A stretch of 64,000 nucleotides of DNA from contig PSQN01000001.1 of the NCBI GenBank assembly GCA_002989075.1, positions 905,760 to 969,759 on the forward strand, written 5' to 3'. This document shows positions 27,226-57,708 of this stretch, piece by piece. The notes under the pieces were generated by a model, which worked only from the letters and a program-made list of their open reading frames with translations, ran no database searches and was not told where the DNA came from. The position numbers were made by a program, and so were the translations under genes. The number at the start of each line of letters is the position of its first letter. Position 1 is the first letter of the stretch. Source of the DNA: Arthonia radiata. Lineage: Eukaryota > Ascomycota > Arthoniomycetes > Arthoniales > Arthoniaceae.

Positions 27226-28518
27226 GATATTGTCACTGCTCAGGACGGTCGGAGAAGGTTCAACAGCCCTTAATGAAGTTTCGCGCCTTTCTGAAAAGAA
27301 GCGGCGGGCTTAGCTGGAGCTTGACATGGACGCCGGATGAATCGACGTAGTGTCCAAGTGGCGCGAAGGTGCAAACGGGAGTGAAGTCGCTGAAATTTAG
27401 CGAACCATTCAAGTCGTGAGGCTGAGAATGCTTCCCGACGCCCAGCGCCTAGTATATAAGCCGAATCCGGACGAGCAGAGAAAGGAAGCCTTGGGCGTGT
27501 AAGAGTGGGAAATCAAGACGCGCCTACAGATGCGTGACGCAAGTGATCGCCTGCTGTCCTCCGACCTCCGCCGCGCCTCGTAGGGCTGACGCTAAGGAGA
27601 CGTTGATGCCTAACTCTTAAGGCTGGGGCGGCTTGTCTTGGCAGGCCACCTCTTACCACAACGACGACTTCTAATCTTCCTGAATATCAGCCGTGTGCAT
27701 GGATGGAGAAGGCGAAACCACGACGCGAACTGACGAGCTACCGTCTGCTGTCGCTTACCACCCACAATGTTCCAAAGTTCTCCTCAAATGCCTCTGACTG
27801 CAGGTTCTGCCCAGCCGAGCGAAATAGTGTCTCCAACAGGTTGACTGGACAGCCACTTCAACCCTGGAGTCAAGAAATAAGAGGGCTTGCACATGACTAC
27901 GCCGTCAGATTCCGCAAGGCGATATCAAACTCTGCGCCTGGGTAGGCGAACTCCGACCACCGGAGTATTCATACATTGTCTTCAGTTATGTCAGAAGCGC
28001 GATATCGCAGCTGGGGCGCTAGCATTGCTTGACCAGAGGTGAATCGCTCTGTTATAATCGAGATGAGTACATAAATCCAGTCACAAAGCGCTGATATACC
28101 TTCCCATGTGAGACGGAAAGTAGCCACATCCGTCATGCCCTTATATTTCCCCGGTATGTGACGGAGTGTATGCTTCTGCGTATGTCTGTATCCTCTGGAA
28201 ACGTCGGTACAGCCTGCAACTCCACTCATGACCGTAACGGAGTATTGTTTCCTATTTTGGAACTGCGCGTTATCGAAAGCGAGTTACGTGGCGTCACAAG
28301 GGTTATGGTAAGTAGATCTGTCGATATGGCAAGACTCGCAGCTTGCCAACAAAGCTATCTACAGCCATCGCAGGACTTCTGATGGCGCAATCATGCTTAG
28401 GCAATCGAGCTAGCCTATTATTCACTTCTATACTCTAAATCCCTTTCGCCTGCGCCGCATCGTATTTCAGAGCATTTACAGTAAGGGTACGTTCGCGAGC
28501 CTTAAGCGGCAAGCCAGG
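27226..28518. other. Intergenic, divergent promoter region (~1.3 kb)
   Basis: The interval lies between the NPC1 start and the SRR1-like gene start. It should hold both promoters. I see no gene, RNA or repeat that I can support. Confidence 0.5.
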
Positions 28519-29571
28519 ATGAGGCGCGTTGTTCGTCAGCTTCTTCGGCGAAGACGTGCACAATCTCAGGAGGTTTCTACACAATCGGACGAAGTGCAAG
28601 TGGGTCCAGAACAATCAGATCCAGTGCAATCAGATCCAGTGCAATCAGATCCAGTTCAATCAAATCCCGTGCAATCAGAGCCACTGCAACCAGAACCATC
28701 CCAGCCACAGCCTGTGCACTCTCATACAGTACAGGTAGGTCCAAGCAGTAGCGCACCACCTCAAAGCAACACTGGCGACTTCAACTCGCTCGGCTTCGCT
28801 CAACGCGCGCTCGCGAACGTTGATCCCAAACTCGCTGCACTAGCCAAACGATACCTCAAGGAGCACAAGAAATGGCTCGCCACCCAGTTCCGAGCGGACC
28901 TCCTCAAGGCCCTCAATTACCAGAAGCGCGCCTTCGAGTCCATAAAACTCGAACACTGCTTTGGTCTTGGCTCGCTCTGGGAACCTCACAGAAACAAAGA
29001 TTGGCAGTGTTTCACTACACGCGCTATCCAGCTCGCCTGTCTGATCGACGTCGTCGCGTATCTCGAGCACACCTCGACCGACCGCTATCCCATTCACATA
29101 TTCGCGCAGGATCCTTCGTTTCATGAGGAGGACTGTTCCCTGTTGGGTTCGTTCAATGTTATATCGACGACCCATCCAGAGAGCCTGCAGCCTCACACAG
29201 ACGCTACAACATTCTTCTACAGCCCACACGGTTATTACACTCCGAGCCTGATCCCCGTCTTCAGCTCGAAAGACCATCTTGAAAGGCTCAGAGGACCGCC
29301 AATTCTCCTCACCACAGATTCGGAGAACGCAGTATTCTCAGGCACTATGAAAGCCATCAACGCGCACTATCGCAAACATGAGATGAGCTCGTGGGAGACA
29401 CTCAACATGAACGAAGAGGCTGAGAAGACTGACTATTGGCTTGCGTTTGTGAATATGCGGCTGTGGATACGACAGGACCTGTATCAGGCGCCCGTTCTGT
29501 CAACACAGCGAGTCGGAGTCGAGAGACTTGGCTTGAAGCATGGTTTCTATGGCCCGCGGCCGACTAAGTAG
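28519..29571 (+). CDS. SRR1-like domain protein with N-terminal repeat
   Basis: Single exon, 350 residues. Residues from about 140 match the general plan of SRR1-like domains (first known from the Arabidopsis clock protein SRR1): FGLGSLWEPHRNKDWQCFTT, a helix with IQLACLIDVVAYLEH, then the strand and loop FFYSPHGYYTPSLIPVFSSK and RLRGPPILLTTDSENAVF. Fungal members of this family are small cytosolic proteins of unknown role. The N-terminal 70 residues are basic and then consist of a five-residue repeat QSDPV (QSDPV, QSNPV, QSEPL), encoded by a 15-bp tandem repeat. That part is probably disordered. A possible alternative is an unnamed fungal family with the same fold. Confidence 0.65.
   Translation: MRRVVRQLLRRRRAQSQEVSTQSDEVQVGPEQSDPVQSDPVQSDPVQSNPVQSEPLQPEPSQPQPVHSHTVQVGPSSSAPPQSNTGDFNSLGFAQRALANVDPKLAALAKRYLKEHKKWLATQFRADLLKALNYQKRAFESIKLEHCFGLGSLWEPHRNKDWQCFTTRAIQLACLIDVVAYLEHTSTDRYPIHIFAQDPSFHEEDCSLLGSFNVISTTHPESLQPHTDATTFFYSPHGYYTPSLIPVFSSKDHLERLRGPPILLTTDSENAVFSGTMKAINAHYRKHEMSSWETLNMNEEAEKTDYWLAFVNMRLWIRQDLYQAPVLSTQRVGVERLGLKHGFYGPRPTK
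28611..28700 (+). repeat. 15-bp coding minisatellite (QSDPV repeat)
   Basis: Five to six tandem units of CAATCAGATCCAGTG, the last ones diverged, lie inside the SRR1-like gene. The unit length is a multiple of three, so changes in copy number keep the reading frame. Confidence 0.9.
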
Positions 29572-29784
29572 CTCGCGTGTGTTCAAAAATGTCATAAACA
29601 CAGCGTCTGAACGCTGCTTGCATGTTCTGTGCATAGTTCTCAGAATCAAGACGCTCTGCGTGCTATTGTCGACTTGTACGTGTTTCGATGAGAGCGTTCG
29701 ACTAATTTGCCAGGTGCTGAGACTTTGTACACCATGACTGTACGGCGTTTCAACAGCGTTGTGGGCCTTTATCAGTCTTCTTCC

Positions 29785-31274
29785 CTAGCTTTCCGTCAGA
29801 CGTGGGACGGTCTTCCCACCACCCTCGATGATGTCAAGCCACTTCAAGATTCTCTTTTGCAAGAAGGAGTTGTCACAATTATCCACAGCGAGGTCGAAGT
29901 CTCTTTGGCGCTGGCTGGTCTTGTACACCTTCACCCACCGAGGCTCCAGTCTGGTCATCTCTGCCCCGAAGAATTTTCGAAGCTCGGTGAGTTCATACTC
30001 CTCCAGATGCTCGCGCCATAGCGACAACGGTCCACTTGTATCTGCATAGCATGATTCCTGCGGCTTCTCTCTTCGTTCACGTCCCTTGAGAAATTCGGGA
30101 AGTTGACAAGCTTTCCACAGAGGCATAGCCGAGACAAACTCCCAGTCGATAACGGCAGTCAGCTTCCCTTGCTGATCGATCAGTATGTTCTGACCAGAAA
30201 GATCATGGTGAAACAGCATTGTTGCTTCTGACGAACATGACGGGAATATCTTTGTAAGATTCTTCCGCAGTCGATCGATGATGAGCTGTATTTTCTCAGC
30301 CTCCTCGTTCACTTCTCCAACATCGTCGGGTTCTGATGCAAGGTGCTTCGCCGTCTGAAGCTTTCTGGCTTCGCTCACAGCAAGGCGAGCTTTGATCCAG
30401 TCTTGACTGGACTTGAAAGGTCCGGTTGGTGTGCGTGATCGGTGGCCTCCCCAGATGAAGTGCATGGATACCATCTCCTTGATCTCATGCGCGTGGTCGG
30501 GATACAAGTTGCCGATGCCAGAGAATTGCTGTTTGTATGTGGAGCTGGCGAAGATAGCAAGCTCCTTGACCAAGCCCTCCTTTTGAGATGCACTCACGGC
30601 AGTCCATCGGCTAGCAAGGCTGTCTCCTGGCATATAATCGAGGAGCATCCATTCGCAACCAATGCGGTTCGCAGTCGTCGCATCGTACGCAACAACGTTT
30701 GCCACGGGCAGTCTAGTCTTTCCCCGCACCCATTGCAGAGTTGCAGCTTCACTCTCCGTCTTTTTACCAGGCTCTACAGGGACGGTCACGCGCAAAACGC
30801 GCTTCTGATCACCGCTGTGGACTTTGTAGACGATATTAAAAGCGCCACGGGCAAGATACTCAACACGTATGGACGCGCCCTGCTTGAAAGCCTTCTTGGC
30901 TATCTCTTTGACGTCGCTTGACTGTCTCAATGTCAGACTGTTTTGACCTTGATTTTCGTTACATGATCAAGGCTCACGCTGGGTTCGCAAGTCCACTCGG
31001 GATGTACGTTGCCAAAATTATCGCACTTCCATACCACGCCAGGTAGTGTCTCCGGAGCCGCTGAGGACAGTCTGGAAACAGCGACTGCATCGTCGGTTTG
31101 ATTGTCTGGAGGAGGTATGTTCTCCAACTCGTCACTCTCCAAATTGTCACGCCCTGGGGAAATTGTGTTGCCTTGCATGTGCGAACGGCGACTTCTTCGT
31201 ATTTTCGGGGCGAACTTGTCTGTCAATTGATTGATGAGTCTGCTCACAAACAGCAAACGACGCGAATTTGTCAT
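29785..31274 (-). CDS. Aminoglycoside phosphotransferase-type (APH) kinase
   Basis: Two exons, 31274-30978 and 30921-29785, join over a 56-nt intron (GTGAGC donor, CTGAC branch, GACAG acceptor) and give 477 residues. The splice links PEWTCEPS to SSDVKEIAKKAFKQG, which is the usual start of fungal APH proteins (a W..EP motif followed by a helix). The N-lobe has EYLARGAFNIVYKV and RVTVP. The catalytic loop is FHHDLSGQNILID (HxDxxxxN) and the metal site is AVIDWEF. The family phosphorylates small molecules or proteins; the substrate here is unknown. The first 85 residues before the W..EP motif are Ser/Arg-rich and not conserved. The ATG at 31274 (MTNSRRLLF) is the first available, so the true start could lie in another exon. 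Confidence 0.8.
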
Positions 31275-32168
31275 CTCGATCTTTCCATCATCACCGCAGT
31301 CGATGAACAGTTCTGGGAAGGAACACAATCAACAGACCATGTTCAGTGACTACAAGAGACTTACAACGGGCGAATGACAAATGGGAAACTCCCTTTCTTC
31401 TCTTTTCACTACGAATGCAGCCGCGTCTGTGCAAGATAATGATAGTTCCAGGTTCAGACGCTGATTATAACGACCAGCAGAAGGTTCGGTCGCCTTTTAG
31501 CGCTAGCGGCGTTTCTCGTCTTCTCATTGGTCGATATGGGCAGACTGCCAGAAGAGGTAAAGTTTTACTCCGCGGCAAAGAATGATTTTTTAACCTTAAC
31601 TAACTTCACTAACAGGCTACTCCCCAATATGATACGATCAGGATGTATGCGAGACTACTCTACCATTCTGTGGAAGATCATCAAACACACCTTGTTCGAT
31701 ACATACCCTTTCAAGACATTATACAATGCGACATTGAGACGTTTCATATATCTGCATCTAGCTACACCTGCTGTCGGAACTGAGAGTATCTCCCGGTTCT
31801 GGAATTGTGATGACCTGGCATCAACGCACGACAAATAGTCAATATTAATGGATGACGCATACGGCGAGCGTGGCTTTCATCACCTCTCCCGCTATGACGC
31901 ACCATACATCAGCGATTGACTCATAATACGTGGCAACTGTTACCCTCTTCCCTCGAGCTATGAACAGCCTGATCGATGCAGAGCTTCTTCGAGAGGAGCG
32001 GTTTGTAACATCCTTGAATAGGGTAATTTTCCCAACTCGACGTTGCGACCGCATCAGGTCATAGACAGAGCTGGGATAGATGGCTGGTCAGGTCAGCTCT
32101 GAGACGAATCCATCTTTCGTTTGATATAATTGGGACCAGATCCAATCGGATGATCTGTTAGATGTCAA

Positions 32169-32215
32169 GGTCATAGCTGGCGGATCGTCAGAAACCTGGC
32201 CGAATCAGGCGGACC
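32169..32215 (-). repeat. Left arm of a 47-bp inverted repeat pair
   Basis: Its reverse complement matches 34581-34629 with about 39 of 47 identical bases, including the shared block CCGCCTGAT and CGGCCAGGT. The two arms enclose about 2.4 kb with two small orphan genes. Confidence 0.6.
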
Positions 32216-32239
32216 GGTCCGCAGGCAATTTATGAATCA

Positions 32240-32600
32240 ACGTTGGTTGGCCGTCGTCTGAAGCGGCCCGCGACATCGTCACCCGGAACGGACCCGCCGA
32301 AAGCACAGCGTATCAGTCTGCCTTCCGACCTCATCCTGATTAGGCCAAGCCAGATTGCCTTGAAGTATCAGGGTAATATAGCGGCATGGCTGACGGATCA
32401 GTTAGATAAGCTTTGCGTCGCCTCCCCACGCGGTCGGAGTAGTCTGAAGACGAGAAACTGATTCGGCTGACCCATTGTCAACACTGTGACAATAATAGTG
32501 CCAATACGTTCTAGGACAACGTGGGTTCTCTGTCGTCTAAGCAACTCAGAACTTCCTCAGCCGGAATGATACCGCCGAAAGCTAATTTTATCACGCTATT
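32240..32600 (+). repeat. Diverged direct repeat pair, ~275 bp apart
   Basis: The stretch CAACGTTGGTTGGCCGTCGT (from about 32231) and CAACGTGGGTTCTCTGTCGT (from about 32518) are followed in both copies by CCGGAA and CCGCCGAAAGC at matching spacing. The copies are about 80-90 bp long and clearly related but well diverged. Confidence 0.5.
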
Positions 32601-32895
32601 TATGACCCCGAACTTGTTGGAGGACAGCGTAGCCCATGGAACTACTTGTGCATATAAATCGTTCATCGTCGGTAGAAAGGATGAACCAAATCGCAAAGTA
32701 TCCTTGAAATTGATTGTATCCCTGGTGACTTGCTATATCAGACCCCAAACATATCTATAAGGTCTGGCCTACCAACGTTTTCTATCACCTACTGGGCTGC
32801 AGCGCCCGCGATAGACCACAGCGATCAACAAGCAAGCTCGTGCAGCACGCAGTACCTCACGTCTTCGCACCTGCTATCCGACTAAGCGCCAAAGT

Positions 32896-33370
32896 ATGGG
32901 CAAATCACAAAAGGCCTTTAAGGACTTCGTCGAATCGATTCCGGACGAAAGGCTTTCAGGTTTCTCGGACGGCAGTCGCACGATAGTCTCAGACGACAAC
33001 TTCCGTCTCGATAATCAGGGAGTATGCCATTGTGTCGCTGATTGCATGCAATAAAGAAAGCCCTTTACTAACTCGAATGGACTAGTTGACAACACCAAGG
33101 CCAGTTGAAGGGGAGAAGCAAGTGGAGAAGCACGGTCTCGCAGAGAAGCTTCACATAGGTACATCAAAAAAGCACAAGAAGGATGAGCACAAGAACGATG
33201 TGCACTATTCTCAAAATCACAATCTTCAGATACAAGTCAATCACGACCCAAAACTCACATCGCTGAAGGGTTACGCACCTAGGACAGTGTCGACGGTAGA
33301 GGTGTCGAAGGATCACCCTGCTCCGCCGGGCACAATCAGGAAGGCATTCAAAGATAACTGCGTATTGTGA
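32896..33370 (+). CDS. Small orphan protein, 136 aa, 2 exons
   Basis: Exon 1 (32896-33021) starts at ATG (MGKSQKAFKDFVESIPDERL). A 64-nt intron with a GTATGC donor, an ACTAAC branch site and a CTAG acceptor leads in phase to exon 2 (33086-33370). The splice signals are good, which is the main evidence for a real gene. The protein is charged, with a His/Lys cluster (TSKKHKKDEHKNDVHYSQNH) and a basic C-terminus ending in RKAFKDNCVL. The terminal Cys three to four residues from the end resembles, but does not match well, a prenylation box. No signal peptide. Function unknown. Confidence 0.55.
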
Positions 33371-33851
33371 CATATCAATCGCCAGGGGACGAAAAGACCA
33401 GTGGAATAATTAGCATCTCTACTGATGGTGAAGACATGTCTCGTTGTGTCTCTTCAACATCTTCAAGACAGCATGACTATAAGTTACCTGCACCAATTTT
33501 CCTATTTACATGATTCAGGTTTTCTGTTATATATCATTTGGGTAACTTGGATGAGTTTTGAAGGCTGCTCGGTCGGTCGGCAGTATCCGAGTCGCCGGTC
33601 TAGATGATTGTTTGGTCCACTGGCACACTGGGATTCATCTTCACGTACCCCTGCCACCTGGCTATTGGAAACGAACATGGCATACTAAGGCAAGGTGTTC
33701 TCAGCTTACTCCCTATTCATTTGTGCTAGTTTGCAGTCTGCTGGAGCATGCGTTTATCCAAGTAGCCGACAGAACGCCACGACTCCAGCCGTCTCGACCC
33801 GTACGAACGGAAGCAACAGCGGCGCTCTTTCGTGGTGTCTCCTCGTCCGCC
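33371..33851. other. Intergenic between convergent small genes
   Basis: About 480 bp between the 3' ends of two small convergent genes. I see no gene or repeat here. Confidence 0.5.
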
Positions 33852-34245
33852 CTACTTCTTCGTGTCTCCAGAAGTGCTAGAGTGACCTTGCTGCGGTCCA
33901 CCAGTAGTCGCACGTTCCTCCGACGCGTGGGCCCGCGAAGTTGCATGTAGCTTGGCCTCCTCGGCCAACTTCTTGCCCTTTCCCCACCTGCATTAGAGTG
34001 CCTCAGTCAGCATACCGAACGAGCCCGGAGAGGTTCGAGAGGGCGTACATCTCCGACATTCCCCTTTGCATGTGCTCTTGAGAGTCTTCGTGCACAACGT
34101 TATGCATCATAGCTCTGTCGCTGGCGGGTTTTTGGAGATCGTCGATATTGTCTGGTTTCACGGGGCGTTCGATGCCGCCATGTTCACCAAACACTGGTTT
34201 CTTGATAATATCCTCCTTGGAGATGAAGCTTTTCTGGTCTGGCAT
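33852..34245 (-). CDS. Small orphan protein, ~110 aa, 2 exons
   Basis: Exon 1 starts at ATG 34245 (MPDQKSFISKEDIIKKPVFG). The frame closes soon after 34010, but splicing 33988-34048 (61 nt, GTACGC donor, CTGAC branch, TGCAG acceptor) continues in phase to 33852 and gives 110 residues. A shorter intron using the donor at 34015 would also keep phase but would be only 28 nt, below the normal minimum. The protein is hydrophilic, with a helical middle (RAMMHNVVHEDSQEHMQRGM) and a Lys/Ala-rich then Ser/Gly-rich tail. No family is recognised. Confidence 0.5.
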
Positions 34246-35289
34246 TGTAATAGAATTCTAGAATGTATCGAAAAGAGTGGTAGGTAGTAATTGGTACTGA
34301 ATGTCTATTTATCATGTCACTCTCGCGGATACCTGGCCTCGCACTCCTCGCTTGCTAGGTACCCGCATAACAGCGTTCGTCTGTTTCCCTTGGTGGATGT
34401 CATTGTTCACCCATTTCCGCCGGGCGGCTTCAGGATGAGCTCGTCGTTGCATATGTGTTCAAACGAAGCGGCATTGAAGTTCTATGTGAATTCCGCGCAT
34501 CGCCGCGCAGTGTCCATAATGCGTCCAATGGTTTCTGCTCAACATCGAACTGATCCATCTCGGTCATACACATGGACGGATTGATCCGCCTGATCCGGCC
34601 AGGTATCTTAAAATCCGCCAGATATCACCCTAAGGCCTGTTGGGTCCAAAACTTGCCCTGTTCCGTAGAAAAAGGACGGATCCGTCGGCGCTTGACCTGA
34701 TCCGGCCATGCAGACTGTTTCAATAGACTCACTATCGGAGCCGGCATCGCGTGAATCGACCGTGGCTTCACACTTGCGAATTGCTAGTCGCTATGCAGGG
34801 TGTTTGCAGCCGCCGTGGCTGGCGGGGAAAGGAGAAGCGTTTCTTGGGACACACCTGGATTGGGGCTGCGCTCGGACCAGAAAAAATCGCTCCAGGGCTA
34901 AAACCGTGTGGAGGGCTATACTGCGTGAATCATCAACAGTAGAGCAACCGAACCCGGGTGTACAATAGCGCGATGCCACCCGCATACACCGCCAAGCTTC
35001 GTGCTTGCGAAATTATCAGACGCTGTTCACACTTAGCGCTCGAATCTCGAAGATACGCAGATTTCTACCGCAAGAATCAAAACCCCCATCACGCCTCGAG
35101 CGGTAGGCAATAGCCATCGGACCAAGACGCACTGCCGCTGCGTGATCGTTTTGCAATCGTTGACGTTTGCCTCAGCAGGTCGACTTACTTGTGACGCCCA
35201 TGACGCGTGCTGCGTGTTCTCGACTCGTACGGAGGAGGTGCTTCTGAATGCTGTGTTTTATCTATCAAGTATTAGCTGAGCGAGCTGTT
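34246..35289. other. Gene-poor stretch with right arm of inverted repeat
   Basis: About 1 kb without a supported gene. It holds the inverted repeat arm at 34581-34629 and, to its right, a further copy of CCTGATCCGGCCA near 34697 and the palindrome GACGGATCCGTC near 34674. Confidence 0.5.
34581..34710 (+). repeat. Right arm of inverted repeat and flanking GATCCGGCC repeats
   Basis: Positions 34581-34629 match the reverse complement of 32169-32215 at about 83 percent. The motif CCTGATCCGGCCA recurs at the other end of this stretch, and a 12-bp palindrome lies between. The layout looks like the end of an old repetitive element, but no transposase is seen. Confidence 0.55.
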
Positions 35290-36513
35290 TCAGTATTCGG
35301 CACAATTTGTAGAGCGCACGTACAGCACTCTGCTATCACTTACTCGGCTGGCCAGAGGCCGGCGACGCAGCTGATCCACACGGCTCGGGAAAGCCCAGTC
35401 GGGCAGGGCCTTGCAGCGGCTGTAGCTCAGGACATGCTGATCATCTATCGCAGCTCTGAAGCCTTTGTTTAAAGCATCCAGTAGCTCTAATGCATTGGGA
35501 CGTTGATGTGGATCGAAATTGAACGAATACTTCACGACCTCCTTGAGCCGCGGCGAGTAGGGCGATGACTTCAGGCAGGCGTCAACCTTGGACTCTTTAG
35601 TGATGCGGCCATCCACATGCCAAGCCTGCATTAGCTGAAGGATTGACAATCCAAGGCACCAGATGTCACGCGAAGGAGATTCGCCGTGACCGTCCTTGAA
35701 GCCTCTGTCTTTCGTCTGCGGTCCCCCAGGCTCGTTCGGTTGGAGGCGACCACCGCGTTGAGGTGGCTTGTAGTACATCTCTGGGGGATAATACACATAT
35801 GTGCCAGCAAAGCTCATGAGATAGCAGTCGTACGAGTTGAATTTCCGGGCCAGCTTGTCCAGCTGGGATTGCAGCAGGCTCGAACCCAGGTCACCTAGCA
35901 CGACTCTTCTGCACGTTGTTAATACCAACTCCTAAATAAGAAGAAGCTCTTAATCCACTCACGGGTATTTTGTGCCGGAAGATGACTTCAAAAATATGTT
36001 GTCGGGCTTGACATCAAGATGAATCATAGCGTCCCATTCAGGCTGAGGCCGACGCCCTGCTGACGCTGCAGCGAAGCGATTCTGACCGTAATGACAATAA
36101 GCAAGCGCTTCTGCGATGCAGGTAAATGCATGCCAGATGAACTCTTCCTGGACGTACACATCCTTGTGACGGTGCCTCTTTATCATGTCAAACATATCGC
36201 CAAGATCGCAATGCACGAGATAGAGGCTGATATGGGAGCCTGGAACATTCTCCAAGTGGGCGCACTTGTTGACGAACACCATGTTTATGTCCATGTTTCG
36301 CATCCACCTCAATGTCTTGAGTCTGGCCCGCTTATCCCACTCGGCGCGCTCGTCGCCAGGCCGATCAAGAGCCTCCCTCTCCTGCTTCTGGAAAAAGAGG
36401 CGGCCGGTCGGTTTGTGACGCGACAGAACTAAGCCTTGGTTATTGGCGCCTGGGAGGCCATGAAGTTGCCGGACAGCTTCAAACACTCCATTTTCGGAAG
36501 GTTGGAGAGACAT
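35290..36513 (-). CDS. Atypical protein kinase (HLD / DLG motifs)
   Basis: Exons 36513-35963 and 35908-35290 join over a 54-nt intron and give 389 residues. Kinase features in order: the start of the N-lobe with a glycine-poor loop (GANNQGLVLSRHKPTGRLFF, with Lys further on), the hinge region LYLVHCDLGDMFDMIK, the catalytic loop MIHLDVKPDNIFL, the metal site VVLGDLGSS, then FAGTYVYYPPEMY and RDIWCLGLSILQLM. The layout is closest to NIMA-related or general fungal Ser/Thr kinases. HLD replaces HRD and DLG replaces DFG, both tolerated in some active kinases. I chose ATG 36513 (MSLQPSENGVFEAV), where kinase similarity begins. An upstream ATG at 36678 is also in frame, but that part contains donor-like sequence and no domain. 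Substrate unknown. Confidence 0.75.
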
Positions 36514-37738
36514 TAGTACACGCGGTCGGTTGAGCGTGAGGCGTCCACGGCATTTCAGGCGCTCAAGCACGCCTTTGAGGATGACCCTACTCACCGACAG
36601 TAAATGACATAGGCATTTAGGCACTAAGAAACGCGCAGCGAAGGTTCGTTGAAGGCTACGTTTGTCATGGGTCTGCATGATGTGCGTGCGTTTGCCAGAC
36701 TGCTTCCAGTGGCGAAGTCGTCCTTCAACGTCGCGAACTCAAAGGCACAGCTCATATAGGCGCGCAGCTCTTGTCGGAGTGGTCTCCAATGCTGATGTAC
36801 TGATCAAGGCGCTGACATGGGTGTCAACATACACCAGACTTTTGGAAGGAAAGGCATGGAGGTGCGAAGCTGTGAGCCTTGACAAGTGTTCTGATGAATG
36901 TTTAGAAGGCCAGAAGATAAGCTTGCATGAATACTGAGAGATCTTTGAAAAACTTTCCCCCGAGCTCTGTGCCTCCGGATATGGTGTATCGAGTGCGAAG
37001 CGTTACCATAGGAGCCAGAGTCATAAAGACGCGCAACAGGAAAGCATTGCTGCGTTTACGAGGACTGTGTTGGTATGACCTACTCGACAAGGAGTAAAAG
37101 TCTTCAGCTCGCTTGTTTCAGCCTTTTTAAATTCCGCAACAACTTTTGCAAAGGATGGCCATCAAAACCGTCGAGAGTTATAATAGCTGTTGTTTCACGT
37201 ACGGCCAAACATTCATAACTTGAGTGGCGACGAGGACTAACGTAGACATCTGTCCTCCCGGAAGACCGCGAGCGTTGATGCTTGATAGCGATTCGTCTCC
37301 CTTCTGAGAGTTTGACACCGAAGATAGAGCATGTCAAGCACACTAACGATGTACCTGTATCAATCTTCTTGATCGGGTCGCTGTCATTGAAAGCAGCTCG
37401 CTGCTTGTGACCACAAGCTTGTGCAGCTTATCCAGCTGTTTACGCAATGCTCGGTGCATCAAATTCGCAAATGAAAAACAGGCTCAGCGCTAGAGTCGGC
37501 AGGTGCGTCACTCGATATATCCAGCGGTATACCCGTGTGCGGTGCCACAATATCTGACTACAAGCCTGAGGATGGGTCCCGTGATAGCGAGGAAAATAGT
37601 TATCCCGCTAGTGTTTTTGCGTGGATGTGCCTGCTTGCGAATTTATTTCCCTTACAAGATCCCCCAGGCCGACCCTTTCCACACGTCTTCGTTCGTCCAT
37701 GTAGAGAGCATGAGTAACTTTACATAATTGCATGCTTC
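36514..37738. other. Intergenic (~1.2 kb)
   Basis: The interval lies between the kinase start and the 3' end of the citrate synthase-like gene. I see no supported gene, RNA or repeat. Confidence 0.5.
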
Positions 37739-39411
37739 TCATCGATAGGCTGGCTTTTCAGCGTCTGCTTCTGGCCCTACAAATATCTGTTGCGGTCTCC
37801 ACAAGTGAACCGGCTGGCCTGGTAAGGGTAGTTGGTTAGCCAACATACTACATTTGCATTGAATGAAAGGGATGTTCACGAACCTGTCATCTCCCGCCAG
37901 TGCGCCATAACGCCCGGCATTCTCGCGAGCGCCATTAGAGACGTGATAATCTACGGCTCGAAGCCTCTGGAAAGCACCACAAAGTCAGTTTACTGCGAGT
38001 AGTCCGCGGTCAGGGTCACCTACAGAGCTGTATATGCTAGGCCGCCAAAGAGATCCGCATTGGCGCTTAGGTTTCGCGACACAAAATAATCGTCTTGTGA
38101 CGCGACACGATCGATTTCCAACGCGACCTGGAGTAGAGGACTCTTACGCTCTGATCCCGCTGTGATCTCATCTAGGATCTCCTTGATATGTCGAATGCGC
38201 GGGTCCGTCGTCCTGTAAAGTCGATGGCCATAGCCGAACAGGCGGTGCTTCTTCGCCCTAACGTCCGCCATCATTGACGCAACATTTTCAGGCTTCTCGA
38301 GACGCTCAAAATTGCGGTACGCAAGATCGATGGCGCCTCCGTGAAGAGGTCCGTTGCCGGCGGCGATGAATGCCCCACAGCATGATATGGGATCCGTGAG
38401 AGTAGACGCTACGTGAAGAAACGCGGCGGTTGAATTCGTCATCTCGTGGTCGCAGTAAAGCACCCAGATCCATTCTAGCGCCTGCACAGTCTTTGCCGCC
38501 GCCTCTGCGTCTTCTTCGGAAACAAATCGCATCATCGTGAGGACGTTGGCAATGAAAGACTTGCCTGGTTCTGGCGAACCCAGGGCTCGACCGTGGCGGT
38601 GGCAGTAAGCGACTGCGATGCATACTGCGAAAGATGCTATGGTACGAACGATTGCCTTATCAATCATGTCCTTGCGATCACGATACATGCACATGTCGCC
38701 CGCAGTCGTTGGAATATATTCGGGCTCCGCGGCATTGAGAGCAGCCAAACCCGCAAGAACCAGAGTGAACGGCGGTGAGTCAGACCTCCCTTGGTTAGTA
38801 ACAGTATGTTTGCAGGTAAAAACTGACCTTACTCACGGTAGTTGCTGCATAGCTGCTGCAACCGCTGGTGGAGCTCTTAGAGCATCGTTCAGGTCAGATC
38901 GAAACCGCAGTCCTTCCTCTCCAGTTGGTAGACGACCCCGGATGAGGAGGTAGGCTACTTCCTCCCATCCATGGTGCTTGAACACATAGTCAAGGGAAAG
39001 TCCTCGATAGTAGATTCTGCCCTCGATCCCATCCCTGTTACATTCAGTCTGGACTCTTCTCTTCGACATACTGCTGACGTGGTAGACTTACACAAACGAT
39101 ACCTGCGAAATCTTCACCGCCGTGTTTCTGAAGCCAGTATCCAGAACACGCAAGCCAGTTCTGCTGCAAGGCAAGGTAGGACATTCTCCCTTCACTGAAA
39201 TCGAACACAGATCAACCGCTTTGACAGCATTGTGAAAGATCGGTAGGTTGTAGATCTGTCCATCTCGGTTGTCGACGATCGTCAACGTCTCCTCAACAGG
39301 CCCTCGCCAGCTTCTCTGGGAAAGACACCTTATAAGTTGCCACAACCTGAATGGCTTGGTCACCCACGACCTCAAATAAACTACAACTCTCCCAATCAAA
39401 GCTGTCTTCAT
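37739..39411 (-). pseudogene. Citrate synthase-like gene (alkylcitrate type), broken fossil
   Basis: A multi-exon gene of the citrate synthase family spread over about 1.7 kb, with normal-looking short introns. Recognisable parts in order: an N-terminal strand region with EETLTIVDNRDGQIYNLP, the dimer and substrate region with GIEGRIYYRG, the catalytic-His region PLHGGAIDLAYRNFE, the second catalytic region LFGYGHRLYRTTDPRIRH, the third with NADLFGG, and a C-terminal helix ending in the common GVMAHWRE. The set of catalytic residues is therefore still visible. It looks broken by about one interruption, so I list it as a fossil. Location and sequence type (no mitochondrial leader) suggest a secondary-metabolic alkylcitrate or methylcitrate synthase rather than the TCA enzyme. 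Its neighbours (dehydratase-like and PEBP-like genes) support this. The family could also act on propionyl-CoA. Confidence 0.7.
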
Positions 39412-40320
39412 TTCGTCCTGATTGATTCACGCCAAGTATTGCAGAGCTTCTCGTTTTCCTGCTTGGCTAAAAGTAATTTCAAACTACAAAACGATACGCA
39501 AGAAAGCAATCTTGATCATGGATTTTCAAAAGAACTCCAATCTGGCCCAAGAACCTATTAGAACATATGTAACCGAAGGACATCATTCCCGATGGAGTAT
39601 GACCACAATGTTTTGCAGCAACTGAGGGCAGCAAATCCTGAGCAACAGGGTCGCTACGATGACGATGTATCACGACCCCTAAACCATTATACCGGCGGCA
39701 ATAGTCACGGATGTTGTGAGATCGAGCTTATTGGCTCTCGAGCTTCCCGAGCCTGCTTTTCGGGGCCTCAAAAATCCATATCAACGTCAGACGGATTTGG
39801 CTAAGCAAACAAGGCATATTCGATCGAGGCCGAGCATCAGTCCCACTAATCATCGGCATGAGGCACAGATTCGGCGGAGCCTGAGATCGCAAGGCATAAT
39901 ACCTACAAGGTATCTTTGTCAAGGTACACGGTACATACTAGCGCCGTGAGACTTTGCTCTGAATGCGGCGTGACGCCTCATCCCGCCCGTCCATGCAGAA
40001 CGTGCGGCTGAAGACCCACCATCAGGCGCACTAAACGTCATTGTTGTATGTGCATGATTCAGAGAGCCAATATGGGTGCGATTGACGTAGGGTAACGTTT
40101 CAGGTATTGGCCACCATGGTGTACCGCGCGCTCCTTGATCATTTGCGAGGCTGAGAAAGGATCGATCAATACAACGGATCTTCATTGAACACGAGGCTTG
40201 TCTCATATGACTGGCATAAGTATTTACTTCTCTATTGCAACTACCATCAGATTTGCTGATTGATAAGGGCGTTTTGCAAAGTGAAACCCTCGAAGAAGCT
40301 CTCGTTCACTCGCAGCGAAC
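39412..40320. other. Divergent region between synthase-like and dehydratase-like genes
   Basis: About 900 bp between the two divergent gene starts, a plausible shared promoter. Short frames at 39592-39949 and on the opposite strand at 39919-40206 show no domain I recognise. Confidence 0.5.
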
Positions 40321-41325
40321 ATGACAACCCACAAAGGATCAAAAGCGCCTACGCAAGCCGTTGAAAGATATGACCGTGTCCTCGAAGACATTTGCGAGTA
40401 TGTTTATGACTACATACCGGAGGGTTCTAACGTGAGAGAGCGCGCCCGAACAGCGCTTCTCGACGCACTTGGCTGCGCGATTGAAACTACTCACGTCAGT
40501 ACCGAATGCCAATCGCTTCTGGGTCCGGTTGTTGCTGGTACACGTGTCCCGCATGGTTTCAAACTCCCAGGTACTCCACATCAGCTGGACCCGGTGAAGG
40601 GCAGTTTCGACATGGGCACTCTCATCCGTTACCTCGACCACAATGATGCAGTGGGGGGAGCGGAATGGGGTCATCCATCGGACAATTTAGGCGCCCTTAT
40701 TTCTGTCGCGGACTGGCTCAGTCGCGAGAACTCGGCCCAAAACGCCGGCAATGGTGTACACTCTCAGCGCGCTCTTCCGCCATTGACCATGCGAACTCTT
40801 CTAGATGCTCTAATCAAAGCATACGAGGTCCAGGGATGTCTCCAAGAATTGAACTCATTCAACGCCGTCGGCCTCGATCATACGATTCTTGTCAAAGTGG
40901 CCTCGACTGCTGTAGTGTCCTGGCTAATGGGGCTCACCCACGCGGAAGCTCTTACAGCAATCTCACAGGCGTTCCAAGACGGCCATCCTCTCCGCACATT
41001 CCGTCAAGCGCCAAATGCGGGGCCCCGCAAAGGCTGGGCGGCGGGAGATGCATGCATGCGCGCTGTGCATCTGGCACTGTTAACGCGTGCAGGACAAACC
41101 GGTGCGCCAACAGTGCTGTCAGATCCGCGCTGGGGATTCAATGCCACGCTCTTTCGATGGGGCGAACTCAAATTGCAGCGGCCGTACGGCACGCACGTAA
41201 TCCAAAAAGTTGGATTCAAAGTCTTGCCCAACGCAGGCCGTGGCACCTCTTGCGTTGATCTTCGTCGGCGAGTGCCCATTTATTCCAACTTAGAAACAAC
41301 GTACACGGCTTCCGAAGTGTCGTGA
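40321..41325 (+). pseudogene. 2-methylcitrate dehydratase-like (PrpD/MmgE), broken fossil
   Basis: The open part encodes 334 residues that match the N-terminal and middle of the MmgE/PrpD family: RARTALLDALGCAIETTH near the start, the substrate region GTLIRYLDHNDAVGGAEWGH followed by HPSDNLGALISVADW, LNSFNAVGLDHTILVKVA, and GPRKGWAAGDACMRAVHLAL. Family members are about 480-560 residues. This one is short and lacks the usual C-terminal region, so it looks broken. In alkylcitrate pathways this enzyme dehydrates the alkylcitrate made by the synthase. It lies divergent to the citrate synthase-like gene, as often seen in such clusters. Confidence 0.75.
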
Positions 41326-41558
41326 CCCTGAGTCACTGAAATAGTATAGAAACCGACAAATTAAGGAAGCTGATTTAGAATCGGCATGTCGAGCACGCAA
41401 GGCGGCAAGATATCTTGCTTCGTTTCACACCATCATACTCCGCACCTGACATATCCATTGATCCCTGATCAGCGCACGTGTGTGGGTCAGCACAGCTCCA
41501 CCCAAGATGCCAGCCTCTATCTCGATGATAGCTTGCATTGACATATTCCCATCACCGA

Positions 41559-42473
41559 CTACATCCTTGTGGCACAGAAATAGATCATGCACCCGCCTGG
41601 ATCGAGCCTGGCCCACCACGCATTCTTGTTCTGCTCCACTGCCTTTGAGTAGATTTCGCTACACTCGACCGTCCATGACGAGCCAGTGTCATTGCCGACC
41701 TGCCTCCAAAACTCTGCCATGCTCTCCGCATTGTGTCGGTAGTTCTTACCTGTCCCGAAGTTGCGGTGCGGCATCGGATATGAGCCCGCATTCCTGCTCC
41801 CCATCTGCGTGCCGGCGATCATTGTTCCTGGGGCGGGTCTGCCCAATACCACGAGTCTCTTGGCGGCCTGGAACATTTCATCCCAATCGAAGACGTGCAG
41901 TAGCTGTGATACTTGAATCAGGTCCATCTGCCCATTGAGGTCATCCAGCTGCGGCTGAGCTTGACCCATCAAGTCTGCCGCAAACATGTTTGCGTTGAAG
42001 CGGCCGCGATCACGGAAGAGTTCGAAGCCGAGATCGATGAGTCCCTGCTCCAAGTCGAACCCATACAATTGGCTGGGGTCAATGTGATCTTCGATGGCGA
42101 GGTAGCGCAGCTCCTGGCCGAGGCCGCATCCGACGTCCATGAGATTCCCTCCCGCGTGAAGCTTCTGCAAGAATCGTTGACAGTAGGGAACCTTGCGCAG
42201 GCGGTCGTTGAGGAACTTGATCTGACCGATGCAGGCGAATTCTGCGATGGCAAAGCCTTTCTCGCGCTGCTCACAGCTTAAGCATGGCTCTACAAGGGCT
42301 GGGTGTTCGATACTCACAATGTTGAGAACATGAGGCAGTATCTCTTCCGTTCGGAAGCCACTATATTCTTGGAGTATCTTCTGACCCTCCAAAGGGATGG
42401 TGTCGAGGGTGACCTCCTGCTGATATTCTTGAGGCTTTTGTGTATCTGGCAGCTCCTGCTCCGACGATGCCAT
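41559..42473 (-). CDS. SAM-dependent methyltransferase, 287 aa
   Basis: Exons 42473-42318 and 42266-41559 flank a 51-nt intron. The intron is a multiple of three and open, so the unspliced frame also reads through. Splicing joins HVLNI to REKGFAIAEFACIGQIKFLN, which fits the fungal family better. Class I motif: LMDVGCGLGQELRYLA, then the acidic position in YGFDLEQGLIDLGFELFRD and AADLMG. The C-terminal part contains GRPAPGTMIAGTQMGS. This type is common in fungal secondary-metabolite clusters, including meroterpenoid ones, where it forms methyl esters or ethers. The substrate here is unknown. It starts 448 bp from the divergent membrane protein gene. Confidence 0.8.
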   Translation of the reverse strand: MASSEQELPDTQKPQEYQQEVTLDTIPLEGQKILQEYSGFRTEEILPHVLNIVSIEHPALVEPCLSCEQREKGFAIAEFACIGQIKFLNDRLRKVPYCQRFLQKLHAGGNLMDVGCGLGQELRYLAIEDHIDPSQLYGFDLEQGLIDLGFELFRDRGRFNANMFAADLMGQAQPQLDDLNGQMDLIQVSQLLHVFDWDEMFQAAKRLVVLGRPAPGTMIAGTQMGSRNAGSYPMPHRNFGTGKNYRHNAESMAEFWRQVGNDTGSSWTVECSEIYSKAVEQNKNAWWARLDPGGCMIYFCATRM

Positions 42474-42921
42474 GACGGTCGTCTCAAATATTTGGTGGAC
42501 TTCAGTTCGTTAAATGCGATTTCGTTCTCACGTAAACGATGAGAAGACACCTGCTTTACCCAAGGGAGTTTTGCTGGGTGCCATAAGCTGCATCGTCAAA
42601 CACAGGCTTTGTAGGCAAACATGGGCATGCGACGCGGGCCGCCCGGCCCCACAATGCTACGTAACATTCAGTGACGAGCATGCAGGGTCTGCATGCATGT
42701 TTAGTTGAGACAGCGCGGCTGCTTGTATGCGGGTCAGCCTACGCCCCGACGGGTTGGCAAACGCTAATTGGGCTAAGATAGTCGCCAGACACATTAGCAA
42801 CTTAAGGCAGGGCTTTCGTTGTAGCTCTATAAGAAATGCAGCTGACGTGAGGACTCGTTCGCGCTTCATGTTCTCAGACTAACATCTAGAGGTTCTAAGC
42901 GTTGTTGTCGGTCAAGCCACG
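42474..42921. promoter_or_regulatory. 448-bp bidirectional promoter region
   Basis: The interval separates the divergent starts of the methyltransferase and the rhodopsin-like membrane protein, so one region probably serves both. I could not identify specific factor-binding sites. Confidence 0.45.
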
Positions 42922-44385
42922 ATGCCCCACCCCACCGCGGATCAGCTGGCTCACTGGCATGACACAAGACAGCCCACGATCTATGGCATAGTGTCGATGT
43001 TCATTTTCCTCACCAATGCATCGGTCATCATTAGACTGGTATCACAGTGGCGCACCGGAAAGCACTTCTATATTGAAGACTGGGCTATCATAGCTGCAGC
43101 GGTAAGACTATCAACCTACCTTGACGATGCTGGCGTACTAACGATATCGATAGTTTCTTACGGATCTTGTGGGATCCATATTTATATGGTGTATGTACAC
43201 ATCTTCCAGGATGATCTAGAACAGCACTAAAAGTGTCATCCAGCTGCAATACGACATGGCGCGGGTCTACACTATTATCGTGTTGTCGAAGAGTTTGGGG
43301 TTATGGCGATAGTCGCCGGGTACCGTGTCAGTACGCTTGGGGACAGATGACAGCATTTTGACGATGAATCGACACTGACTGGGCTCACAGGACGCTTGGG
43401 TAGTCGCTTGGCTCTTGGGTCCGTGGCTCCTCGCGACCAAAGTCTCTCTTCTCTGTTTCTACAAACGGCTGTTCCTTATCCAGCAGAGATGGCTCAAGTG
43501 GGCTTGGTGGTCTAATATGCTCTTTGCAATTGCCTGGGCGACAGCGACCACACTGTACTATATCTTCCAATGTACGCCACCGTCATACTATTGGGAGCGA
43601 ATGGAAGTGAAGCTGGGGGTGAAACGGCCGCAACAGGTTCACGGCTCTTGCTCCTCTGTCTCTGAGGTTGCCATTGCGGTACCACTCATGATCAGCCTGG
43701 TTTCTGATATTGGCATATTGCTACTTCCGATGATCACGTTGGCGGCCCTACAGATGCCGGTGAGAAAGAAAATAGGGCTTACGTTTGTGCTCTGCTTCGG
43801 AGTCTTGTAAGTGCCAACCAGCCCTGTGGTAGAAAGGTTCCTATGTGGGTTGATGGTGCTGACGAATGGAAAGAGCTTGTGCTTGCGAAGTCGGTCGTAT
43901 CTATGTCGAAGCAACGGTAGACCGACAACTGGCAGATCCTACATGTGAGCAAGTTTGCCCAGTCACACCCCTATCTCGTATTAACAATAGCAGGGGGGGT
44001 TGTTCCATTCAGCCTTGTCAACTATGCAGAGCCGTGCATTGCTATAATTGCGGCTTGTGTACCTTTCATGGCTTCGCAACTCCGATGGACGTACGATAAG
44101 CTTGTTACTTTGTCGAGTCGCCGGTACACCTCCAGTAAAGGTCGCACCGCTTCGAGGTTCGAAAAACTGAAGTCTATCAAGCGCTTCGATCCCAGCAAGA
44201 CAAGGAACGGCAAGCCCACAGCTCAGCTGCCGGATGAAGCCAGTCGCGAGTGGCTGCGTCTTGAGAATGAGGGACCCACACTTCCAAAGTCAGGCCATGC
44301 AAGGAACGGGAAGCACGCGCCAGGACAGATTGGAGTATCGACTGAGATCGACATTGAACTTGGTGACTTTCGAAACGGTATATGA
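42922..44385 (+). CDS. Seven-helix fungal rhodopsin-like membrane protein, 6 exons
   Basis: Exons 42922-43101, 43154-43190, 43244-43326, 43391-43806, 43874-43944 and 43991-44385 fit in phase and give 393 residues. The N-terminal segment has the first helix (YGIVSMFIFLTNASVIIRL) and HFYIEDWAIIAAA, a hallmark of this fungal membrane family, followed by IRHGAGLH. Later helices are in VAWLLGPWLLATKVSLLCFY, WWSNMLFAIAWATATTLYYI, ISLVSDIGILLLPMITLAAL, KIGLTFVLCFGVL and EPCIAIIAACVPFMASQLRW. The C-terminal 115 residues are a charged cytoplasmic tail. The family (rhodopsin domain-containing, related to PTH11-like receptors) is usually of unknown ligand. The donor at the end of the third exon (GTCAGT) is weak, so that boundary is the least sure. 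Confidence 0.75.
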
Positions 44386-45070
44386 GTGGCTGCAGATTCA
44401 AGGACGACGCAGCGCTTGTGGGTCCTACCAACTCCTCTTATCGATTGAGTCGAGATGAAAGCCCCTGTACAAGTAAACCACACAGATAGTTGCCTTTCGA
44501 ACAGGTGTTGTAATGTATCCGAGCGGGCAAACAGCGCAAGCCTGTTTTGCATCGATGGACGTTTCAGCCAGCACGGGGAAATAAGTGTTTGCTTTGCTCC
44601 AATGTGATGATGACGCGTGGTCATCTCTCCAGCACTCGGAACGCAGATCTTTGCACGCCAGACTATCTTTTGACTGGAGCGGACAAATTGTAGTGGAACG
44701 GATATCTCGATCTTCGAGTGTATCTTTTATTAGACAATCGGAACTCTCTCACCGTGCATGTTTATCTTCTGTTCTAGGAAAGTGTTGAGGATCCCGTGAG
44801 ACTTACGTGAAAGCAGCTGATGTCCTGCAAGGTTCCGCTCTTTCAATCCCCCTTTCATCATCTCGTGTGGGAGATTCCGCTAAGGATAGTCCCTTCTCGT
44901 ATGAGCAAAGAATCTGCATCATACCCTAGCAGCGTAAGTTCCAATCAGATACGCCGAAGTGTTTTTGTTTGCCTTAATCTGCCTTCAGGGCCACGCGCGA
45001 TTCTGTATTCGCACGCTTCCACGTTCCTCTCACTTCATCAGCCAGATCACAACATCCACGGCGCTCGAAG
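44386..45070. other. Intergenic (~690 bp)
   Basis: I see no gene or repeat. The right end is the upstream region of the PEBP-like gene. Confidence 0.5.
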
Positions 45071-45682
45071 ATGCCAACGCTTGGTGCGCGAATCGAAGCG
45101 TCATTAGGTCGCCTCTTCTACTCCGCACGCGGTCGTGACGCAAAGCTGTTCACCAAGGCCACAGCTTTTCAAAACGTCCCCGAGATCAGCATCACAGTCA
45201 TGTCAGCCGAGTGTCCAGGCAACCCAGCACAACTGCTAGCTCACCACGCTTTCGAGCAGGACCGCTTTCCTGAGCTTCGCTAAGACATTACATCGTCCAC
45301 AACAGACGTTACTGAGTATATCCTTGTAGTAGAGGATCCAGACGCGCCGCTCCCGTCGCCGGTGGTGCACGGCTTGTACTATGGCATTCCCGCAACCAAG
45401 ACGGACGTCACTGCCGGGGACTTTGAATGTACAGAATCCCAGGGAAACACATTGAAGGGAGGGTTCAGGTTTGGAATCAACAGGCGGAAGACAGTGTGGT
45501 CGGGTCCGAGACCGGTGCTGGGGCACGGAACGCATCGGTACATGTTCCAGATCGTGGGCTTAAGTGCTGGCGTTGAGGCTGGGGAGAGGGAGCTCGGGAG
45601 GGAGGAGCTGTTGAGCGCGATTGAAGGGAAGGTTGTGGCGTGGGGTGTTTGGATTGGGACGTACGAGAGAACGTTGGAATAG
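45071..45682 (+). pseudogene. PEBP-like (phosphatidylethanolamine-binding) gene, broken fossil
   Basis: One exon of about 200 codons in a single frame with the full layout of a fungal PEBP-like protein. The N-terminus has the helix GRLFYSARGRDAKLFTKA typical of secondary-metabolite PEBPs. The centre contains VVEDPDAPLPSPVVHGLYYG, the ligand-pocket signature DPDAP with the following His. The C-terminus contains PVLGHGTHRYMFQIVGLS (the GxHRY motif) and a final strand with WGVWIGTYERTLE. It looks broken by about one interruption and otherwise well kept, so the loss is probably recent. In maleidride clusters PEBP-like proteins take part in dimerising the monomers, which fits the neighbouring synthase and dehydratase. 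A general lipid-binding PEBP is the alternative. Confidence 0.75.
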
Positions 45683-46218
45683 GAGACAACAGAAGCTCGT
45701 GACATCTAGCATGCATCGTGTTCGCTAGGGAGACCATGGTCGGGTCAGGAAAATCCATCAAGCGATGACCTGTATATCATCTCATGTATACTTCCTTGCG
45801 ATATATACACTTCGCGTCCTGTCGCAAGATAATAATCATGTGAAAAGCGCCATTGGCCTACACTGGCATGAGGGTTGGCACACGGCATGACGGGAGTCAG
45901 GACAGGGAAAAGAATGATGGAGGAGGCTGAACTGGCCATCGCTAAGAATAATCACGTGCACAGCGCGGCAATATCGGCGGCTAATTAGCGGGCTTGGCAC
46001 GTCCGGACCCTGATTTGGATACGCGACGAAAGCTTGGACACGTCTGCCCTCACTTGCATATCAGATTTACCACACTTCGGCGCTGAGACGCTTTCTCAGT
46101 ACGTCTCCGTTCATTCCTGGGAGCAAGAGCACGCCTCGAATGGGTCTGGATGGTGGCACAAATCACGCTTTCAGCTGTCTAGCTGGGTCATCCGGTGCTT
46201 GGCGCCGTTTGCGTCAGC
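45683..46218. other. Intergenic (~535 bp)
   Basis: The region is upstream of the HbrB-like gene. It holds no supported gene. Confidence 0.5.
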
Positions 46219-56888: not shown

Positions 56889-57708
56889 GATGGATCATGA
56901 CCTTTTCCTGTAGGCGCGTGAACAGTTCGGTCGCGTTGTCGAATGGGTCAGTTCCTAGCCGCTGTGACACTGGACATGGATTTGTTGATGGTCGCGCAAC
57001 GAGTGGATTTGATGGAATAGTATTCAAAAGTCAAGTCAAACTCCAAGTGTATGTACAGATCATGTGAGGTTGTATTGGCTCCAATGTCGAACGCATTATT
57101 ACGTTGCGCCGAGTCGCACAGACAGAGATCGCCTAGGTCCAGAAAAGGCAATATCGGACGCAAGGGCAGACCAGGCAGCCAGGGTGCATATAATAACAGT
57201 ATAATTGTCGATACCAATGTTCTGGTCAAACAAATAATTCTTGCAGTCATGCGCGTCTCAAGGACAGATGCAGTGTACAAATCAAGCTGCCGTTTGCGTC
57301 GCTACTACGCATACATAACAATCGTAACCGCTACGGAGTATGCCTTGCCTCTAGTCATGCGCTGCACTAGCTTGTCAATTTGTACCTCGGAATTATTCAA
57401 GTGAATATTGAAGTCGTGCTTTGAAAGAGCCTGTACGACTTATCCGCCGTGAGATGATGCCCGTCACTTTCTGTTTCCCGAACGTTATGCTGAAGTGAAG
57501 AGTCTTGGCGCGATGATCGAGCTCCGACCACATTCAAGGTTTAGCGCCCCAAAAAGTGTCGCGCCAACGCATGTCATTTCTCCCTGCAATCCGGACGGTT
57601 TGAGCACCTGCATGCTGGTTATTGTTTTGCTCCCAAATGCTGTGATGCCATGTCGACCAGCCTGCTAGACACTCTTAGATAATACTCTTTCAACCTTAGC
57701 ACGCCGCA
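56889..57708. other. Divergent intergenic region (~820 bp)
   Basis: The interval lies between the starts of the Sif2-like gene and the TMEM115-like gene and should hold both promoters. I see nothing else. Confidence 0.5.

What the first reader, a model, noticed from the sequence alone, without database searches (positions are those of the whole stretch)
37739..45682. Fossil alkylcitrate (maleidride-type) pathway module
A citrate synthase-like gene, a 2-methylcitrate dehydratase-like (PrpD) gene and a PEBP-like gene lie within 8 kb. In maleidride clusters these three types act together: alkylcitrate synthase, alkylcitrate dehydratase and PEBP-like dimerisation factors. Here all three look broken. 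The synthase and the PEBP-like gene have about one break each and otherwise keep their family motifs, which points to recent loss. A methyltransferase and a seven-helix membrane protein that still look whole sit inside the group. No polyketide or fatty acid synthase is seen in the window, so either it lies elsewhere or it is gone.
Basis: partly seen in the sequence, partly recalled or inferred. Interest (0 to 1): 0.75.

Follow-up and report, generated by a model that had tools for sequence, protein, structure and literature searches.

The report
Decayed maleidride-like fungal gene cluster
In an unnamed fungus, three neighbouring genes of the kind that make maleic-anhydride natural products all look broken, leaving what are probably the remains of a lost chemical pathway; such decay is common in fungi and this case is a modest addition.

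Summary
Within 8 kb lie a citrate-synthase-like gene, a PrpD (2-methylcitrate dehydratase)-like gene, a methyltransferase and a fungal-rhodopsin-domain membrane protein that both read as whole, and a PEBP gene. The synthase is interrupted by four ordinary short introns and one real in-frame TAG (37953-37951), just before its last conserved blocks. The dehydratase keeps its N-terminal domain but has lost about 200 C-terminal residues, with no trace of them in the window. The PEBP frame has one TAA (45281-45283). By sequence the synthase is of the bacterial/peroxisomal kind, not the mitochondrial one. Synthase + dehydratase + PEBP is the published maleidride combination; main texts on two FAS-type alkylcitrate clusters mention no PEBP. 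A ketosynthase was sought and not found, and no cyclase or hydrolase turned up, so I do not file it as a maleidride cluster. Best reading: relic of a maleidride-like alkylcitrate cluster between conserved genes (NPC1, HbrB). 'Recent loss' has rough support only: two stops in 646 codons, no RIP signal; but conserved-site retention in the synthase is at or below the low end of working paralogs. No fungal collection was available, so orthology, gene order and age are untested. Ordinary in kind; interest modest.

The parts
37739..39411 (-). Citrate-synthase-like gene (alkylcitrate-synthase candidate), five exons; first in-frame ATG at 39411 but true start uncertain
   Evidence: PF00285 on two exon pieces; introns; profile matches in order along the gene (the first and last exons only weakly, E 4.9 and 7.9)
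37951..37953 (-). In-frame TAG in the fourth exon of the synthase
   Evidence: exon before it ends at profile column 377, piece behind it covers columns 384-404; sequence
40324..41325 (+). PrpD / 2-methylcitrate-dehydratase-like gene (alkylcitrate-dehydratase candidate), N-terminal domain only, 333 aa
   Evidence: PF03972 9.3e-73; TIGR02330 positions 1-273 of 468; C-terminal part not found in the window
41559..42473 (-). SAM methyltransferase gene, one 51-nt intron 42317-42267, reads whole
   Evidence: PF13649 3.1e-6, PF08241 3.4e-5; spliced frame open
42922..44385 (+). Fungal rhodopsin-domain membrane protein gene, five introns, 393 aa, reads whole
   Evidence: PF20684 7e-25 on one exon piece; spliced frame open
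45071..45682 (+). PEBP gene with one in-frame stop
   Evidence: PF01161 2.7e-17 on 45284-45682; 55-bit match to a bacterial PEBP profile
45281..45283 (+). In-frame TAA in the PEBP frame
   Evidence: frame 44978-45283 and frame 45284-45682 are the same frame
27310..46182 (.). Stretch between conserved genes (NPC1 23212-27309, HbrB 46183-48741) that holds the group

Best explanation
The group is the decayed core of an alkylcitrate gene cluster of the maleidride kind. While whole, the synthase would have joined an acyl-CoA (polyketide-derived) to oxaloacetate, the dehydratase would have made the maleic-anhydride monomer, and the PEBP would have helped a separate cyclase to join two monomers; the methyltransferase would have been a tailoring enzyme. 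The acyl-chain synthase, cyclase and hydrolase are not in the window: deleted, moved, or beyond recognition. Shown here: the families, the introns, the stop in the synthase, the truncation of the dehydratase, the stop in the PEBP frame, the two whole genes. Inferred: that the three genes once formed one pathway, what it made, and that the loss is fairly recent.
For: Three pathway-type genes within 8 kb, each with a lesion. The same three are core genes of published maleidride clusters, with the PEBP as a helper of dimerisation (PMC8851701 sections 5, 12, 13; PMC4982102 passages). The synthase matches peroxisomal and bacterial citrate synthases (best 9x0i, 2.5e-38) far better than mitochondrial ones (5csc, 3.1e-5) and the eukaryotic model scores only 27 bits against 159 for the best model; for the oryzine synthase the closest UniProt hit listed is also a non-fungal citrate synthase, from Dictyostelium (PMC6162547 passages). 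Six of seven active-site-type columns that I looked at are kept in the synthase. The dehydratase keeps 98 of 126 near-invariant columns up to its break. Main texts on two FAS-type alkylcitrate clusters contain no 'PEBP' and no 'methyltransferase' (PMC7338620; PMC6162547). No RIP signature, so the stops are not part of a hypermutated stretch.
Against: No ketosynthase in the window, no cyclase, hydrolase, isochorismatase or CoA-ligase beside the group. No fungal sequence could be compared, so membership in the maleidride clade of synthases was not tested. The paper places the secondary-metabolism synthases nearer to bacterial methylcitrate synthases, whereas here the bacterial type-I citrate synthase models score higher than the methylcitrate synthase ones. 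The large synthase exon keeps 42 of 93 near-invariant type-I columns, at or below the low end of eight class-II control sequences (57-83 of 123). Codon usage does not separate the broken genes from the whole membrane protein gene.
Confidence: 0.66

Rival explanations
1. Relic of a fatty-acid-synthase-type alkylcitrate cluster (alkylcitric acid, oryzine or sporothriolide kind), with the PEBP gene a neighbour by chance.
For: These clusters also pair a citrate synthase with a 2-methylcitrate dehydratase (PMC7338620 passages; PMC6162547 passages). Neither PKS nor FAS is seen in the window, so the chain-maker is open. No test here tells the two synthase kinds apart.
Against: The two main texts do not mention a PEBP or a methyltransferase, while most maleidride clusters hold a PEBP and some hold a methyltransferase.
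Confidence: 0.17
2. Not a pathway relic: stray paralogs of primary-metabolism genes (methylcitrate cycle and others) that lie together by chance and decayed on their own.
For: The dehydratase matches bacterial 2-methylcitrate dehydratases at 47-55% identity over 300 residues and primary-metabolism PrpD models strongly.
Against: The synthase is not the fungal mitochondrial type; synthase, dehydratase and PEBP side by side by chance is unlikely.
Confidence: 0.07
3. The genes work: the stops are sequencing errors or are avoided by splicing, and the short dehydratase is a real variant.
For: Only one stop in each of two genes; introns are many and short here, and non-standard splice sites exist; no transcript data were on hand.
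Against: Three separate lesions in the three pathway-type genes, while the two genes between read whole; the dehydratase lacks 63 of 189 near-invariant columns; skipping the synthase exon that holds the stop would remove the conserved block behind it.
Confidence: 0.1

Closest known systems
Byssochlamic acid and related maleidride clusters (bf cluster; PMC4982102 passages, PMC8851701 sections)
   Same: Citrate-synthase-like gene, 2-methylcitrate-dehydratase-like gene and PEBP gene close together (there BfL2, BfL3, BfL5)
   Different: Here no PKS, hydrolase or dimerising cyclase was found, and all three shared genes look broken
Phomoidride-type clusters (PMC8851701 section 19)
   Same: A methyltransferase beside the alkylcitrate genes; the paper reports AusD-like methyltransferases in the phomoidride cluster and in five orphan maleidride clusters
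   Different: That the methyltransferase here is AusD-like is recalled from motifs, not tested (PTHR35897 is not in the libraries held)
FAS-type alkylcitrate clusters (akc of Aspergillus niger, oryzine; PMC7338620 and PMC6162547 passages)
   Same: Citrate synthase paired with a 2-methylcitrate dehydratase
   Different: Those have FAS subunits; their papers' main texts mention no PEBP

Membership tests
Maleidride cluster (core set in PMC8851701) | Alkylcitrate synthase gene | tested here: inconclusive
   Citrate synthase family confirmed, non-mitochondrial type; alkylcitrate clade not testable without fungal sequences; gene holds a TAG
Maleidride cluster (core set in PMC8851701) | Alkylcitrate dehydratase gene | tested here: inconclusive
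   PrpD family confirmed but truncated; clade not testable
Maleidride cluster (core set in PMC8851701) | PEBP-like gene (in most clusters, not all) | tested here: met
   PF01161; frame holds a TAA; type 1 or type 2 not determined
Maleidride cluster (core set in PMC8851701) | Highly reducing polyketide synthase | tested here: not met
   No ketosynthase match in any open piece of 12 aa or more of the 64-kb window (profile from 8 bacterial sequences, no fungal positive control); may lie elsewhere in the genome
Maleidride cluster (core set in PMC8851701) | Maleidride dimerising cyclase (NTF2-like) | tested here: inconclusive
   No NTF2/SnoaL-type Pfam match in the pieces scanned; no specific profile available
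Maleidride cluster (core set in PMC8851701) | AlnB-like hydrolase | tested here: inconclusive
   No hydrolase-type Pfam match in the pieces scanned; pieces under 70 aa not scanned with Pfam
[quoted passage not shown]
   No ketosynthase match; no FAS domain among the pieces scanned with Pfam
AusD-like methyltransferase | PTHR35897 subfamily | not testable with these tools
   PANTHER not held; Pfam gives only generic methyltransferase domains

The most novel reading that the evidence does not exclude
An undescribed kind of maleidride-like cluster (synthase, dehydratase, methyltransferase, rhodopsin-domain protein, PEBP) was lost in this lineage by stepwise breakage, and the methyltransferase and membrane protein inside it were kept and taken up for another use. 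The dehydratase differs from 79 of 79 bacterial PrpD references in a block next to a conserved His (their TWLAA reads AVGGA here), smaller side chains that could have made room for a long alkyl chain.
Probability: 0.15. Interest if true: 0.5.

Novelty: new member of a known kind. Interest (0 to 1): 0.3.

Why it matters
If right, it adds a case of a maleidride-like cluster caught in decay, and it would let one ask in which order such a pathway is dismantled and why some of its genes survive. Decayed secondary-metabolite clusters are well known in fungi (recalled), so the gain is modest. Of the sources searched, one search for 'gene cluster' + 'pseudogene' + 'maleidride' returned a single paper, where 'pseudogene' appears only in a reference title; this is a limited library and no claim of priority.

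Tried and rejected
Considered and set aside: (1) Broken reading frames throughout the synthase: rejected, most interruptions are short canonical introns. (2) RIP as the cause of the stops: TpA/ApT is 0.54-0.77 and (CpA+TpG)/(ApC+GpT) 1.05-1.24 in the three genes, outside the usual RIP ranges (thresholds recalled). (3) A decayed C-terminal half of the dehydratase: no match. (4) Ketosynthase remains: none. (5) Codon usage as a mark of decay: uninformative, the whole membrane protein gene scores as low as the broken genes. (6) Relatives in viral contigs for four of the proteins: none in four scans. (7) tRNA and Rfam landmarks: none. (8) Repeats in 27300-46300: one short direct family and one weak inverted pair, nothing that looks like a transposon end. 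(9) PHROGs for the methyltransferase: none. (10) Conserved-site count for the second synthase exon (11 of 43) is not used: its tail was placed wrongly in the alignment, which also inflates the span (123 columns) used for the eight controls.
Full report
What is there. The window is eukaryotic: introns are frequent and short, and conserved genes include Rgp1 (1163-3598), NPC1 (23212-27309), HbrB (46183-48741) and ATG13 (50759-53347); I take it to be from a filamentous ascomycete (inference). No genome is held for it. The group lies in the stretch between NPC1 and HbrB, whose open frame begins 0.5 kb behind the PEBP stop.

Synthase. On the minus strand from 39411 to 37739, two exon pieces match Citrate_synt (3.8e-56 and 1.1e-11). 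Four short introns (57, 51, 57 and 65 nt) link five exons; a profile built from 29 bacterial citrate synthases matches the pieces in the right order, strongly for the second and third exons (5.5e-9, 2.1e-50), at E 0.001 for the piece behind the stop, and only at E 4.9 and 7.9 for the first and last exons. One in-frame TAG at 37953-37951 stands between profile columns 377 and 384. A protein ending there would lack the conserved block with the Arg that all 29 references share and the C-terminal part. Of seven active-site-type columns looked at, six are kept (two His, three Arg, one Asp); the seventh (the His of AHPM) is Pro here, a place where the 21 class-I references have His and some class-II references have other residues. 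Site names follow recalled E. coli numbering. Against a simple 'well kept' reading, the large exon keeps 42 of 93 columns that are near-invariant in 21 class-I references, and the piece behind the stop 7 of 10, while eight class-II sequences keep 57-83 of 123 (46-67%) over a span that includes misplaced columns. So the synthase is at or below the low end of working but distant paralogs.

What kind of synthase. In the PDB the best match is a peroxisomal citrate synthase (9x0i, 2.5e-38), then bacterial ones; mitochondrial-type entries are weak (5csc 3.1e-5, 1csc 8.6e-5) and methylcitrate synthases are in between (3hwk 2.6e-14, 3o8j 1.9e-11). NCBIfam gives 159 bits for the best citrate synthase model and 27 bits for the eukaryotic one, all below the cut-offs, the query being one exon piece. 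The paper on maleidride clusters says that their synthases carry PTHR11739:SF4 and sit near bacterial methylcitrate synthases; the second point is not what I see, but I could not test it with fungal sequences.

Dehydratase. 40324-41325 matches MmgE_PrpD_N (9.3e-73), the PDB 2-methylcitrate dehydratases (4 of 4 hits, best 7.4e-88) and TIGR02330 at positions 1-273 of 468. With a profile from 79 of 80 bacterial loci, it matches columns 11-293 of 491; nothing else in the window scores above chance. Of 189 near-invariant columns, 126 fall before the break, 98 of them kept, and 63 behind it are missing. Among the 28 changed sites three stand together beside the conserved EWGHPSDN motif (W110V, L111G, A112G), with the Thr before them also different; this may reflect a larger substrate or decay.

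PEBP. 45284-45682 matches PBP (2.7e-17) and a profile from 10 bacterial PEBPs (55 bits). The same frame continues upstream of the TAA at 45281-45283 to an ATG at 45071, but that upstream part has no family match. An intron over the stop was looked for by eye only and no good donor was seen.

Whole genes inside. The methyltransferase (287 aa after a 51-nt intron) and the fungal rhodopsin-domain protein (393 aa after five introns) read through without internal stops. The methyltransferase resembles the AusD family in motifs that I recall; no call tests that.

Missing parts. All 35 open pieces of 70 aa or more that one search listed for the gaps between known genes in 27.3-45.1 kb were candidates; 34 of them were scanned with Pfam, 37494-37724 was not, and that list left out a few pieces that cross its bounds (such as 39922-40305 minus). 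None reached a cut-off. The ketosynthase profile (8 bacterial sequences out of 25 loci) found nothing in 2661 open pieces of the window; I had no fungal positive control for it. Other genes in the stretch are an SRR1-domain protein (28414-29568), an APH-type kinase (29788-30966) and a protein-kinase-like gene (36738-35293, below cut-off).

Comparison with the literature. In PMC8851701 (abstract, outline, and sections 5, 10, 12, 13, 14 [first parts of 5 and 14], 19 and 24 read) the maleidride core set is PKS, hydrolase, synthase, dehydratase, dimerising cyclase and PEBP; three orphan clusters lack a PEBP; an AusD-like methyltransferase is in the phomoidride cluster and five orphan clusters. In PMC12117428 (passages) a working maleidride cluster has no PEBP, so a PEBP is not universal; its presence here still favours the maleidride side, because the main texts on the akc and oryzine clusters contain no 'PEBP' and no 'methyltransferase' (passages and word counts). 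In PMC4982102 (passages) two PEBPs raised dimer yield over 20-fold. PMC9890510 and PMC8403587 were seen as passages.

Age. Two stops in 646 codons of synthase and PEBP pieces, with 3.1% of random changes making a stop, give about 0.034 neutral substitutions per site (0.004-0.12). The figure assumes that each stop is one neutral event after the loss and that my exon borders are right. No RIP signature.

Verdict. The group is probably the relic of a maleidride-like alkylcitrate cluster. It fails one tested membership feature (PKS in the window) and several could not be tested, so it is filed as 'works like', not as a maleidride cluster. It is ordinary in kind and of modest interest.

Noticed in passing
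61700-64000 (+): NRPS-like gene (AMP-binding PF00501, AMP-binding_C_3 PF23562 6.4e-25, PP-binding) whose reading frame changes between about 62.4 and 63.0 kb; either introns or a second broken secondary-metabolism gene at the window's edge.
   Followed up: partly
40651-40665 in the dehydratase: Block TWLAA, the same at near-invariant sites in 79 bacterial PrpD references, reads AVGGA here beside a kept EWGHPSDN motif.
   Followed up: partly
35293-36738 (-): Protein-kinase-like gene in two open pieces (PF00069 2.6e-5 and 0.02, below cut-off), separated by what may be a short intron.
   Followed up: no
28414-29568 and 29788-30966: SRR1-domain protein (1.3e-14) and APH-type phosphotransferase (1.8e-19) beside the group; a short imperfect repeat lies inside the first (28581-28655).
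   Followed up: no
12006-12014: Run of nine N, an assembly gap.
   Followed up: no
57700-58143 (+): DUF1751 membrane protein piece (PF08551, 4.3e-22).
   Followed up: no
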